This document shows positions 4,058 to 48,748 of a stretch of 64,000 nt of DNA, piece after piece (position 1 is the stretch's first letter; each line of letters starts with the position of its first letter). The position numbers were made by a program, and so were the translations under genes. The notes beneath the pieces are model-generated. The model ran no database searches. It had not been told where the DNA came from and saw only the letters and a program-made list of their open reading frames with translations. Origin of the DNA: Christiangramia sp. (lineage in GTDB: Bacteria; Bacteroidota; Bacteroidia; Flavobacteriales; Flavobacteriaceae); assembly GCF_029937855.1 (NCBI RefSeq), contig NZ_JAPYPC010000001.1, positions 133,275 through 197,274 of the forward strand, given 5' to 3'.

Positions 4058-4154
4058 TTGATCCGAAAAGGCATTCTGGCTTATAATCTTAGATTATTTA
4101 CAGTTGCGCAACAGCTCATGAATTTCACATGATTCCCCTTGAATATCGAACCAA
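4058..4154 (-). promoter_or_regulatory. Cobalamin (B12) riboswitch upstream of nrdB
   Basis: Read leftward, this stretch has the landmarks of a cobalamin aptamer: a GGGGAATCATGTGAAATTCA block with a hairpin (4119-4138), the conserved core GCGCAACTGTAA (about 4098-4109), and the B12 box AAGCCAGAATGCC (4070-4082). A closing P1 helix can be drawn between TTGGTTC (4148-4154) and GGATCAA (4058-4064), seven consecutive pairs. Just downstream, 4030-4057 can form further hairpins that may be the expression platform; no T-tract terminator is obvious, so control may be translational. A TATTTTTAC element at about 4165-4175 could be the -7 box. The rest of the 3940-4322 gap holds no gene. B12 elements on B12-independent reductases are known in other bacteria; the effector here is inference. 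Confidence 0.85.
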
Positions 4155-45378: not shown

Positions 45379-45993
45379 ATGTCATTTGAGTTACCAAAAT
45401 TAAAATATGCCTTTGATGCACTGGAACCACATATAGATGCTAAAACGATGGAAATCCACCATGGTAAACATCATGCAGGTTATACTAAAAAGCTAAATGC
45501 CGCCATAGAAGGAACAGATATGGAAGGGAAAAATATTGAGAATATTTTAAAAAATCTTGATATGTCTAATAAAGCCGTTCGAAACAACGGTGGCGGTTTT
45601 TATAATCACAATCTTTTTTGGGAAATTATGTCGCCAGATGGTGGCGGAAAACCGGAAGGCGAACTAGCTAGTGCAATAGAGTCGGCTTATGGTTCTTTTG
45701 AAGCCTTTAAAGAAGAATTTTCCAATGCAGCAGCGGGACAATTTGGTTCTGGATGGGCATGGCTTTGTGTACATGAAGGAGGAAAGGTAGAAGTTTGTTC
45801 TACTGCAAACCAGGATAATCCAATTATGCCTGAAGTAGGATGTGGAGGCACTCCAATCTTAGGTCTTGATGTTTGGGAACATGCTTATTATCTGAATTAT
45901 CAGAATAAGCGTCCAGAGTATATCGATGCATTTTTTAACGTAATTGATTGGAAAGAAGTTTCCAGTAGATATGCCAAGGCAAAAAGTAAATAA
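45379..45993 (+). CDS. sodA: Superoxide dismutase, Mn-type (or cambialistic)
   Basis: A 204-residue cytoplasmic Fe/Mn SOD. Metal ligands: His in [12 protein letters not shown], His in [11 protein letters not shown], Asp and His in [12 protein letters not shown]. The metal-tuning positions look manganese-like: Gly in NNGGGFYNH and Gln in [10 protein letters not shown], as in Mn-SOD, rather than the AAQ of Fe-SOD. Starts [18 protein letters not shown]. No signal peptide. Single-gene transcript with a -7 element at 45331-45338 and its own terminator. Confidence 0.95.
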
Positions 45994-46014: not shown

Positions 46015-46042
46015 AAAAGGCCGCTATTAGCGGCCTTTTTTT
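46015..46042 (+). terminator. Terminator after sodA
   Basis: Stem AAAAGGCCGC/GCGGCCTTTT with a five-base loop TATTA and seven T. Confidence 0.9.
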
Positions 46043-46264
46043 ATTCTTCAGTATTAAAAATAATCAGGATTCTCGTTTGTAAATAAAATTTAAACTAATA
46101 ACCTGTTCCTGTATTCTACATCTGTCTGTACCGTAGAAATTTTTCTATCAGGATAAAAAATGATGCAGCTTGTTTCGCTAATGTATATTGAAAAGTAATA
46201 TAACTTGTCTTTGATTAAGTTATAGGGAATCGCTTTCAATTAATGCTTGCTCAGTTAATTCCAT

Positions 46265-46338
46265 AAAAAAAGGCGGAATAAATTCCACCTTTTTTTGCCC
46301 CAAATCTACCATGAACTTAACCTACTTATGCTATGGTA
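46265..46338 (-). ncRNA. Candidate small RNA, copy 1
   Basis: Read leftward from about 46338: CCATAGCATAAGTAGG, GTTAAGTTCATGGTAGATTTG, GGGGC, then AAAAAAAGG-TGGAAT-TTA-TTCCGCC and seven T, an intrinsic terminator. A TATATTTAC -7-like element (about 46341-46349) precedes it. The terminator stem has a G-U pair on this strand but a C-A mismatch on the other, in all three copies, favouring leftward RNA. Resemblance to the Flavo-1 RNA family is a hypothesis to check. A rightward 27-codon frame (46311-46394) overlaps it. Confidence 0.5.
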
Positions 46339-46485
46339 TAGTAAATATAAACCCAATTATTTTAAAAATTTCACTTTTTAGACCAAACGCATAGATATTA
46401 GTTAAAAAGCTGTTTTGAAGGAAATTGAGAATTTTTATCGATGATTTTATGATTTGAAGGAATATCCAGCTTGATTTAATTCCAT

Positions 46486-46561
46486 AAAAAAAGGCGGAAT
46501 TAAAATTCCACCTTTTTTTGCCCCAAATCTACCATGAACTTAACCTACTTATGCTATGGTA
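46486..46561 (-). ncRNA. Candidate small RNA, copy 2
   Basis: Second copy, identical to copy 1 from the TAnnTTTA element through GGGGC; the terminator differs only at the top of the stem and loop (GGAATT/AATTCC), so pairing is kept. It lies about 220 nt from copy 1. A rightward 24-codon frame (46534-46608) overlaps it. Confidence 0.5.
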
Positions 46562-46699
46562 TAGTAAATATAAACAGAATTATTTCTAGTGTCGGGCTTT
46601 TTAGATGAAGTACCTGAAAATTAGTTAAAGAGTTGAAAATTAAAAAATTGTAAAAAGAAGAAGTGGTTTTTTTCTACAAAATAATTGATGACTGAAAAT

Positions 46700-46772
46700 A
46701 AAAAAAGGCGGATCGAATCCACCTTTTTTTGCCCCAAATCTACCATGAACTTAACCTACTTATGTTATGGCC
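46700..46772 (-). ncRNA. Candidate small RNA, copy 3
   Basis: Third copy. The core is identical to copies 1-2 except C-to-T-type changes near its 5' end; the terminator stem is shorter (GGAT/ATCC) but paired. Upstream, leftward TTTG, N19, TACTTTAG gives a near-consensus promoter, the best of the three. It lies downstream of purF on the same strand and could also be made from its 3' end. A rightward 33-codon frame (46745-46846) overlaps it. Confidence 0.5.
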
Positions 46773-46849
46773 TCACTAAAGTAGATAGAATTATACTACA
46801 CCCAAAGAATATTAGACCAAATGCAATTATATTAGTTAAAAGGTAAATT

Positions 46850-48748
46850 TTAATAGGCTCTGTCCTTTTTTCCCTCGAAAAAGTTCATAAATGCCCGATT
46901 TACTACACGGTTTCCTCCCGCAGTGGGATAATCTCCTGTAAAGTACCAATCTCCAAGGTTCTTGGGACATGCTTTATGTAAATTATCTACAGATTGATAA
47001 ATGACTTTCACCTCGGCATTTACATCGGTATCGCAAAGAAGTTCTGAAATTTTATCAGAAATTTCCTCATCGGTGAATGGTTCATAGATTTCCTTAACAA
47101 AATTCTGAACTTCCTTATCATCAAGATCTACCTGCTCTTTGCATTTGTCATATACCTTTTCAACTATGTAATATTGGTTATTGTCCTTCAGCAATTCAAG
47201 GGCAGCTCTAAAAGCGACCAGGTCTTCTAATCTTGCCATGTCTATCCCATAACAATCTGGATACCTGATTTGAGGGGCAGAAGATACCACGATGATCTTT
47301 TTAGGTTTTAACCGGTCCATCATTTTAATGATACTCTTCTTCAGGGTTGTGCCCCTAACAATACTATCATCAATAATCACCAGATTATCTTCAGGCTTTA
47401 CAACTCCGTAAGTGACATCATAAACGTGGGCAACAAGATCGTCCCTGCTGCTATCTTCAGTAATAAAGGTTCTTAACTTTACATCTTTAATGGCAATTTT
47501 TTCAGTTCTGAGGCGATGGGAGAGTATTTCCTGAAGCCTGGCATCGGTCAGGGATTCTTTTTCCTGAAGAATTGCTTCATTCTTTTGTTTGTTCAACTCA
47601 TCCTGTGCCGCTTCCACCATTCCGTAGAATGAAGTTTCCGCAGTATTGGGAATAAAAGAAAAAACGGTTTTTAGCGTATCGTGGTTTATGGATTTTAGAA
47701 CTTCAGGCATCAATAGCCTACCCAGCATTTTTCGTTCTTCATAGATTTCTGCATCACTTCCCCTTGAAAAATAAATACGCTCAAAAGAACAGGCTTTTCT
47801 TTCTAAAGGTTCAATAATTTCCGTAATGGAAACATCTCCATTCTTTTTGGTAATAATGGCATTTCCCGGAGGTAATTCATGTACATCCTTAAAATCTACA
47901 TTAAATACGGTTTGAATTACCGGTCGTTCTGAAGCTACTACTACCACTTCATCATCCTTATAATAATATGCCGGCCTAATTCCCGCAGGATCGCGAAGAA
48001 CAAAGGAGTCTCCATGACCAATTAATCCTGCCATGGCATAACCGCCATCCCAGTTTTTGGATGATTTCTTCAGGATCTTGGCAACATTTAGTTTTTCTGC
48101 AATTATTGGTGAAGCTTCTACTTTAGAATAACCCTCTTTTTTAAGTTTTTTATATAGTTTTCGGACTTCAGAATCCAGAAAATGGCCAATCTTTTCCATT
48201 ACGGTGACCGTATCTGCCCTTTCTTTTGGATGCTGACCTAGTTCCACAAGATTATTAAAAAGCTTGTTTACATTGGTCATATTAAAGTTTCCGGCCACGA
48301 TCAGGTTACGGTGCATCCAGTTATTCTGCCTAAGAAAAGGATGAACGTTCTCTATACTATTCTTTCCGAAAGTTCCATATCTAACATGACCAAGGAATAC
48401 TTCGCCTAAATAGGGAATATATCTTTTCTGAAGGTCGGTATCATCAGCATATTCCGGGTTTGCCTGTATCTCCTCATTGATCCTTTGATTGATCTGGGCA
48501 AAAATATCCTGAATTGGTTGTGCCTGGTTAGAACGGACTCTGCTAATGTATCGCTCCCCGGGAATCGTATTGAGCTTGATGCTGGCAAAACCTGCACCGT
48601 CCTGGCCCCGGTTATGCTGTTTTTCCATCATCAGGTACATTTTATTCACACCATAAAATGCGGTCCCGTATTTTTTCTTGTAGTAATCAAGAGGTTTTAA
48701 AAGCCTAATATGCGCAATTCCGCATTCGTGTTTTAAAGCATCACTCAT
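46850..48748 (-). CDS. purF: Amidophosphoribosyltransferase-like protein, long Bacteroidota form
   Basis: A 632-residue class II glutamine amidotransferase plus phosphoribosyltransferase, related to PurF (first step of purine synthesis: PRPP and glutamine to phosphoribosylamine). The nucleophile is Cys9 in MSDALKHECGIAHI, exposed after removal of eight residues; QHNRGQDGAGFAS and the PRPP-binding loop NLVIIDDSIVRGTTLKKS are clear. It is about 130 residues longer than E. coli PurF (505). The phylum may carry a second, standard PurF, so this one could be a paralogue with another role. purN lies nearby. Confidence 0.82.
   Translation of the reverse strand: MSDALKHECGIAHIRLLKPLDYYKKKYGTAFYGVNKMYLMMEKQHNRGQDGAGFASIKLNTIPGERYISRVRSNQAQPIQDIFAQINQRINEEIQANPEYADDTDLQKRYIPYLGEVFLGHVRYGTFGKNSIENVHPFLRQNNWMHRNLIVAGNFNMTNVNKLFNNLVELGQHPKERADTVTVMEKIGHFLDSEVRKLYKKLKKEGYSKVEASPIIAEKLNVAKILKKSSKNWDGGYAMAGLIGHGDSFVLRDPAGIRPAYYYKDDEVVVVASERPVIQTVFNVDFKDVHELPPGNAIITKKNGDVSITEIIEPLERKACSFERIYFSRGSDAEIYEERKMLGRLLMPEVLKSINHDTLKTVFSFIPNTAETSFYGMVEAAQDELNKQKNEAILQEKESLTDARLQEILSHRLRTEKIAIKDVKLRTFITEDSSRDDLVAHVYDVTYGVVKPEDNLVIIDDSIVRGTTLKKSIIKMMDRLKPKKIIVVSSAPQIRYPDCYGIDMARLEDLVAFRAALELLKDNNQYYIVEKVYDKCKEQVDLDDKEVQNFVKEIYEPFTDEEISDKISELLCDTDVNAEVKVIYQSVDNLHKACPKNLGDWYFTGDYPTAGGNRVVNRAFMNFFEGKKDRAY

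What the first reader, a model, noticed from the sequence alone, without database searches (positions are those of the whole stretch)
46255..46846. Three tandem copies of a small-RNA-like element between sodA and purF
Each copy has an identical 40-base core and an A7-hairpin-T7 terminator whose stem top varies while pairing is kept. On the leftward strand the stem position that is C-A on the other strand becomes a G-U pair in all copies, so the leftward RNA (about 75 nt) is the better-folding product. A TAnnTTTA/TAnnTTAG box precedes each at the same distance, and copy 3 has a TTTG 19 bases upstream. A tandem triplication suggests dosage or multi-target regulation. The core may correspond to the Flavo-1 RNA motif; that is memory, not a search.
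Basis: partly seen in the sequence, partly recalled or inferred. Interest (0 to 1): 0.85.

Follow-up and report, generated by a model that had tools for sequence, protein, structure and literature searches.

The report
Tandem small RNA of Flavobacteriaceae
Between the genes purF and sodA this marine bacterium carries three tandem copies of what looks like a 72-75 nt regulatory RNA, which matches no family of the RNA library searched here and is found in most of the sampled genomes of its family, usually at the same place and behind a conserved switch-like DNA site.

Summary
Three leftward units (RNA 46771-46700, 46560-46486, 46337-46265) each have a paired DNA site, a sigma-A-type -7 box, a near-invariant 41-nt 5' domain and a terminator. 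A covariance model finds the RNA in 320 of 397 sampled Flavobacteriaceae genomes; outside the family only 29-38-bit hits appear. Where purF or sodA was found beside it, the order was purF > array > < sodA (178 and 167 of 197 loci). Covariation and G-U wobbles favour the leftward strand. It is not Flavo-1; no Rfam 15 family reaches its gathering score. Upstream lies a direct repeat with a 20-bp offset, LytTR-like in layout; at 3 mismatches or fewer it occurs in the own genome only at these copies. Best reading: a multicopy base-pairing sRNA switched on by a response regulator, working like LhrC or FopS but a member of neither. One candidate target, a stand-alone response regulator, has a leader matching the RNA's loop and linker, conserved in its genus; this is suggestive only, and genome-wide target tests were negative. 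No expression data were available.

The parts
46265..46337 (-). sRNA copy 1 (distal, sodA side), 73 nt, predicted +1 at 46337
46486..46560 (-). sRNA copy 2 (middle), 75 nt, predicted +1 at 46560
46700..46771 (-). sRNA copy 3 (purF-proximal, first in direction of transcription), 72 nt, predicted +1 at 46771
46342..46349 (-). -7 box TATATTTA of copy 1 at -12 to -5
   Evidence: profile; spacing rule in PMC9723704 (passages)
46565..46572 (-). -7 box TATATTTA of copy 2
46776..46783 (-). -7 box TACTTTAG of copy 3
46803..46806 (-). TTTG (-33-type element), only in copy 3
   Evidence: TTTG in 21 of 24 A-type copies of the genus against 4 of 50 G-type copies
46378..46406 (-). paired activator-type site of copy 1: TTTAACTAA (46398-46406) and TTGGTCTAA (46378-46386), offset 20 bp
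46601..46629 (-). paired site of copy 2: TTTAACTAA (46621-46629) and TTCATCTAA (46601-46609), offset 20 bp
46812..46840 (-). paired site of copy 3: TTTAACTAA (46832-46840) and TTGGTCTAA (46812-46820), offset 20 bp
46850..48748 (-). purF, conserved upstream neighbour on the same strand
45379..45993 (+). sodA (Fe/Mn superoxide dismutase domains), conserved convergent neighbour
   Evidence: synteny

Best explanation
Each unit is a self-contained gene for a short base-pairing RNA. A DNA-binding response regulator (most likely LytTR type; not identified) binds two direct half-sites at -69 and -49 and switches on sigma-A transcription from a -7 box; the RNA ends at its own terminator. The RNA has a 5' hairpin with an invariant GUAGG loop, a single-stranded linker with invariant UUUGGG, and the terminator hairpin. 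Loop and linker are the likely contact sites for mRNAs, blocking translation starts. Tandem copies raise output; the purF-proximal copy, the one with a -33-type TTTG, may give a basal level while distal copies depend on the activator. Shown by sequence: the units, strand preference, promoter layout, paired site, spread, synteny. Inferred: that it is transcribed, the activator class, action by base pairing, the basal role of the first copy, and the targets.
For: Family spread: 320 of 397 sampled genomes, 10 of them with weak E-values above 1e-7. Covariation on 130 distinct copies: 11 of 13 terminator pairs and 3 of 11 hairpin pairs change on both sides; 97.8% of cells paired against 33-59% when slid. 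The changes at pairs 1:30, 7:23, 45:75 and 51:69 keep a standard pair only on the leftward strand. AGUAGGU and UUUGGG are present in 130 of 130 distinct copies, UUUGGGG in 125. TA and TT at -12, -11, -8 and -7 in 263 non-redundant copies, as described for sigma-A boxes in F. psychrophilum (PMC9723704, passages). Direct repeat: identity 0.603 at offset 20 against 0.438 for permuted partners; each other offset from 10 to 33 is at most 0.37. LytTR sites are described as direct repeats, in LytTR systems mostly 12 and sometimes 11 or 13 bp apart, and in Bacteroides systems 11 bp apart, just upstream of the promoter (PMC6193735, passages); here 11 bp. The site is found only at the three copies of the own genome at 3 mismatches or fewer.
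Against: No transcript data. The 5' hairpin is so conserved that it shows few double changes, and pair 13:21 is broken in 32 of 130. No general excess of complementarity at translation starts: with the seed anchored on the start codon, 205 of 300 permuted seeds do at least as well in the top 20 and 99 of 300 in the mean. The two-block pattern CCCCAAA..CCTAC is no commoner than its reversed control: 225 against 228 matches in 59 genomes (totals). The candidate target was found only in one genus, while the RNA is family-wide. Full AlgR-type boxes occur in only 10 of 263 second half-sites and 1 of 263 first half-sites.
Confidence: 0.6

Rival explanations
1. The RNA is a protein-binding or protein-titrating RNA (CsrB/Rsm or 6S manner): the invariant hairpin-loop-linker is a protein site, and tandem copies set the dose of the sponge.
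For: Both paired and unpaired positions of the 5' domain are almost invariant, more than a seed needs; no genome-wide mRNA complementarity signal.
Against: I see no motif repeated inside the RNA; no partner is known. Only one RNA-binding protein family, RRM_1, was searched for, and none was found in this genome, which says nothing about other families.
Confidence: 0.25
2. It is a flavobacterial branch of the Bacteroides FopS family, repressing starts through a UUCAUGG-type anti-start-codon seed.
For: Same plan (multicopy, about 70 nt, own promoter, 5' domain plus terminator); shared blocks TTCATGG, TAGATTT and AGGTTAA with FopS copies. By shared 7-mers, 66, 243, 259 and 1715 of 20000 shuffles are as good for the four FopS copies compared.
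Against: FopS model gives 20.7, 20.4 and 18.6 bits on the copies against a cut-off of 56; no FopS in the own genome; of 198 class genomes searched 6 match and none is of this family; no RRM_1 protein; block order differs; by local alignment 159, 204, 367 and 1941 of 5000 shuffles are as good; no start-codon register signal in 944 starts, of which only 4 were SusC-like, so the SusC question is hardly tested.
Confidence: 0.08
3. The repeats are only the 3' ends of purF transcription: terminators and repeated intergenic DNA without a free RNA.
For: Where neighbours were found the array lies between purF and a convergent sodA, and each unit ends in a terminator.
Against: Each unit has its own conserved promoter and paired site; copies also occur away from purF and sodA (8 of 197 loci show none of the seven neighbour genes tested, some being cut by the locus end); the 41-nt body is far more conserved than the terminator.
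Confidence: 0.05
4. A small protein is encoded.
For: A short open frame starts at the ATG in the body of the minus strand.
Against: Body and A-tract vary by single-base insertions and losses, and the terminator loop length varies. I ran no coding-potential test beyond this.
Confidence: 0.02

Closest known systems
FopS (RF04319) of Bacteroides
   Same: Multicopy sRNA of about 65-70 nt in Bacteroidota, canonical promoter per copy, 5' recognition part followed by a terminator (PMC11697453, passages); some shared 7-mers.
   Different: Copies at scattered places; predicted single-stranded 5' seed instead of a hairpin; binds the RRM protein RbpB, while no RRM_1 protein was found here; model score far below cut-off; not found in this family's genomes.
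LhrC1-5 of Listeria
   Same: Several nearly identical copies, each promoter depending on one two-component system; [quoted passage not shown]
   Different: 111-114 nt, redundant UCCC sites, binds Hfq, other phylum; sequence relation not tested.
Qrr sRNAs of Vibrio (named in PMC11697453; details recalled)
   Same: Small family of near-identical sRNAs behind dedicated regulator sites (recalled).
   Different: Sigma-54 and LuxO driven, not tandem (recalled).
Flavo-1 RNA (RF01705)
   Same: Reported as widespread in Flavobacteriaceae (PMC9723704, passages).
   Different: No match to any copy.
Rfp sRNAs of Flavobacterium psychrophilum (PMC9723704)
   Same: Independent short transcripts of a member of the same family; one of them could be this RNA.
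   Different: Rfp18 is said to pair through a third stem-loop (section read); this RNA has two. The Rfp sequences were not readable here, so identity with another Rfp is open.

Membership tests
Flavo-1 (RF01705) | score at or above the gathering cut-off of 42 bits | tested here: not met
   no match on a copy; 15.1 bits at 46101-46159
FopS (RF04319) | score at or above the gathering cut-off of 56 bits | tested here: not met
   20.7, 20.4 and 18.6 bits; none in the own genome at E 0.001 or better
FopS (RF04319) | RRM_1 partner protein (RbpB) in the genome | tested here: not met
   no PF00076 match at E 0.001 or better in the own draft genome; 2 of 14 control genomes ring, Bacteroides ihuae among them
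FopS (RF04319) | conserved recognition part single-stranded at the 5' end | tested here: not met
   the similar stretch sits in the 3' arm of a predicted hairpin
FopS (RF04319) | pairs with translation starts, chiefly of SusC-type genes | tested here: inconclusive
   no register signal in 944 starts of a sample with only 4 SusC-like genes; above 60 shuffles but confounded
multicopy regulatory sRNA (working type) | several near-identical short units, each with promoter and terminator | tested here: met
   (by sequence only)
multicopy regulatory sRNA (working type) | expressed as a free RNA | not testable with these tools
   no RNA data
LytTR-type binding site | direct repeats of 8-13 bp about 11-13 bp apart upstream of the promoter | tested here: met
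   (offset 20, 9-bp half-sites, 11 bp between); rule from PMC6193735 and PMC4064291, passages
LytTR-type binding site | half-site like CCGTTCGTC (AlgR) | tested here: inconclusive
   second half-site: full CCGTT[CT][AG]TC in 10 of 263, GTT[CT][AG]TC in 38, TT.[AG].C in 156; first half-site 1, 6 and 142
LytTR-type binding site | bound by a LytTR protein | not testable with these tools
   needs a binding assay; no LytTR gene was searched for

The most novel reading that the evidence does not exclude
A family-wide two-tier sRNA array: one basal copy next to purF and a variable number of activator-only copies behind it make an RNA that grips mRNA leaders at two points, hairpin loop GUAGG and linker UUUGGGG, in a genome without an RRM_1 protein; in Christiangramia it silences a stand-alone response regulator, so one phospho-signalling pathway damps another.
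Probability: 0.22. Interest if true: 0.78.

Novelty: new member of a known kind. Interest (0 to 1): 0.62.

Why it matters
Post-transcriptional control in Flavobacteriaceae, which include many marine polymer degraders (recalled), is little explored. A conserved, syntenic, multicopy RNA with its own paired regulatory site gives a single deletable locus for testing sRNA control in this family, and since no Rfam 15 family reaches its cut-off here, annotation by Rfam will pass it over.

Tried and rejected
Flavo-1 and other Rfam families: the best sub-threshold line is HrrF at 29.6 bits against a cut-off of 77 (E 0.005); I judge it and the other weak lines to be driven by the A-tract terminator, without a separate test. 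FopS membership: rejected as above. Start-codon targeting: 944 starts from 1.2 Mb of a same-genus genome plus the window. RNAduplex energies beat all 60 shuffled RNAs on four measures, but that test rewards any CAUG-bearing query; the anchored test was negative. Some antisense 7-mers are commoner in leaders than inside genes (for example GCCCCAA 3 against 2 counts, 0.50 against 0.08 per 10,000 positions; TAACCTA 11 against 11 counts, 1.82 against 0.41), but numbers are tiny and uncorrected for the number of words. Two-block pattern over 59 genomes: no excess over the reversed control (totals). Of 8 loci of that search that I opened, 2 were the response-regulator leader; the other 6 were not in front of a recognised gene, one (L320) lying 29 nt before a 77-aa frame. 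Structure-aware ranking put the regulator 12th of 943, not first. Phage carriage: 0 exact pattern matches in viral contigs. A first pattern for the upstream site was mis-spaced and found nothing; the corrected one was. Nine loci with copies and without the full neighbourhood gave no common neighbour by eye; in F. orientale two copies follow two kinases and a receiver-only regulator, whose leader lacks the CCCCAAA motif. No LytTR gene was searched for, and no test was made of which regulator co-occurs with the RNA.

Literature searches; none listed a paper on a tandem sRNA between purF and sodA. That is no proof that it is unpublished, since the supplement of PMC9723704 could not be read and most subscription journals are not held.

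Full report
What is there. On the minus strand between purF (46850-48748) and sodA (45379-45993) lie three repeated units. Each codes, by its signals, for an RNA of 72-75 nt: RCCATARCATAAGTAGGTTAAGTTCATGGTAGATTTGGGGC, an A tract, and a terminator hairpin ending in T7. Predicted starts are 46771, 46560 and 46337; the longest stretch identical in all three is 47 bases. The leftward strand folds at -21.5 to -22.7 kcal/mol with z-scores of -3.6 to -4.0, the rightward at -15.3 to -16.5 with z-scores of -3.2 to -3.7; a version of copy 1 shortened at both ends gave -17.9 and -2.7. The predicted fold is a 5' hairpin with loop GUAGG, an 11-nt unpaired linker, and the terminator.

Strand. Among 53 distinct copies the variable pairs 1:30 (A-U/G-U), 7:23 (A-U/G-U), 45:75 (A-U/G-U) and 51:69 (U-G/U-A) keep standard pairs on the leftward strand, whereas G-U there reads A.C on the other strand. 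On a wider alignment, from 71 loci that I chose out of about 200, the tool aligned 150 of 159 matches (130 distinct): 14 of 24 pairs show changes on both sides against 7.5 in shuffles, and 97.8% of cells pair against 33-59% when the partners are slid. Most of that signal is in the terminator (11 of 13 pairs); the 5' hairpin has 3 of 11, and its pair 13:21 is broken in 32 of 130. That alignment was fitted to the model, which leans towards the structure.

Spread. BLAST with the own copy found it in 55 of 99 genomes, own genome included; four or more of these were weak. A covariance model found it in 320 of 397 sampled genomes of the family and 199 of 237 genera; 10 of the 320 have weak E-values (4e-7 to 9e-4) and may be chance. 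In samples of the order and of the phylum, which share genomes, 12 of 196 and 11 of 296 genomes matched from outside the family, all at 29-38 bits; I take these as chance but did not inspect them. All three searches used filters that lose weak matches. In the own draft genome three copies were found. The window's genus is Christiangramia by inference: G011, same genus as the window, has a contig of 1,227,444 bases, as does the C. sediminis record of L146.

Place. Of 197 loci with copies (some are repeat views of one array) 178 show purF upstream on the same strand and 167 show sodA downstream and convergent; no locus shows either in another arrangement. Eight show none of the seven neighbour genes tested, in part because the copy is near the end of the locus. 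The loci read hold one to six units, median spacing 212 bp (unique copies only); one genome has 7 matches (G285).

Transcription signals. In 263 non-redundant upstream regions (of 354 unique copies) TA (0.89, 0.90) and TT (0.98, 0.93) stand at -12, -11, -8 and -7, the place given for the sigma-A box TAnnTTTG in F. psychrophilum (PMC9723704, passages). Further up are two half-sites, TTnRnCTAA at -69 and -49. Identity between them within a copy is 0.603 at offset 20 against 0.438 when partners are permuted; all other offsets from 10 to 33 are at most 0.37. The core TT.[AG].C is at -49 in 156 and at -69 in 142 of 263, both in 135; it is one base further up in 70 and 69. In the own genome the pattern TTTAACTAATNTNNNNGNNNTTCGTCTAAAA with up to 3 mismatches occurs three times, at the three copies. 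LytTR regulators bind direct repeats with about 11-13 bp between them just upstream of the promoter (PMC6193735 and PMC4064291, passages); here it is 11 bp. That the regulator is of this class is inference, and no such gene was looked for.

Two kinds of copy. Among 74 unique copies of the genus with enough upstream sequence, 23 of 24 with A at base 7 are the first, purF-proximal unit of their locus, and 21 of the 24 have TTTG between -37 and -30; of 50 with G at base 7, none is first and 4 have TTTG. So the array holds a distinct proximal member and a set of distal members. That the first gives basal output is inference.

What it pairs with. AGUAGGU (loop and one stem base on each side) and UUUGGG (linker) are in 130 of 130 distinct copies, UUUGGGG in 125. 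In 944 gene starts from 1.2 Mb of G006 and the window, one leader carries CCCCAA then CCTAC: a 134-residue receiver-only response regulator (the domain call, 77, is on its orthologue in the own genome). Reversed and swapped patterns gave 0 starts each, and a looser pattern 2 against 1, so one hit is not significant alone. Its orthologues were then read: 22 found in the 24 genomes of the genus searched, 21 leaders readable. With the looser blocks CC[CT]AAA and CCTA, 18 and 19 of 21 have one and 16 have both in order; for two leaders I moved the anchor by hand to allow for an N-terminal extension. Shuffles of each leader give 0.9 on average and never more than 7 of 21; 17 of 944 starts in general have both. 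Shared descent inflates the excess over shuffles. The own genome's leader is at G000:C42:52424-52439; the gene upstream codes for a PAS-rich protein with a HisKA match below cut-off and no ATPase domain match. Cofolding gives -10.0 to -18.2 kcal/mol, better than the mean of 60 shuffles in 20 of 21, but at most 3 of 60 shuffles as good in only 8 of 21; in the G006 sample the gene ranks 12th of 943. The pattern search over 59 genomes gave 225 matches against 228 for its reversed control. I hold this target at about 0.3.

Known families. Flavo-1 and FopS fail their cut-offs on the copies; no FopS and no RRM_1 protein was found in the own genome. FopS and this RNA share TTCATGG, TAGATTT and AGGTTAA in a different order; 66, 243, 259 and 1715 of 20000 shuffles do as well for four FopS copies. 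In working type it resembles LhrC1-5 of Listeria: several near-identical copies, each promoter depending on one two-component system, recognition in loops and in the stretch between stem-loops (PMC4132741, passages).

Verdict. An RNA family with strong comparative support and, by the searches made here, no name; mechanism plausible but untested; class of system known.

Noticed in passing
window 4061-4151, minus strand: AdoCbl-II (B12) riboswitch at 43.9 bits, above its cut-off of 36.5.
   Followed up: no
L184 621-7458 (Flavobacterium orientale): Two copies of the sRNA lie just after two histidine kinases and a receiver-only response regulator and before a gene for a ParA/NUBPL-type ATPase; purF and sodA are not in that locus.
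   Followed up: partly
L336 4018-7785 (own genome, contig C42): Genes for a PAS-rich protein and a receiver-only regulator separated by 24 nt, 16 of them CCCCAAAAAACCCTAC; similar leaders in orthologues of the genus.
   Followed up: yes
window 46015-46042: Symmetric terminator-like hairpin after sodA, GGCCGCTATTAGCGGCC with T7, facing the array.
   Followed up: no
L112, L129, L113, L096, L101, L103: Second copies scoring only 51-62 bits beside a copy of 77-89 bits, perhaps decaying or specialised units.
   Followed up: no
G028, G030, G037, G047; G310, G446: Copies at distant places or on other contigs of one genome, so the unit also occurs outside a single array; their neighbours were not read.
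   Followed up: no
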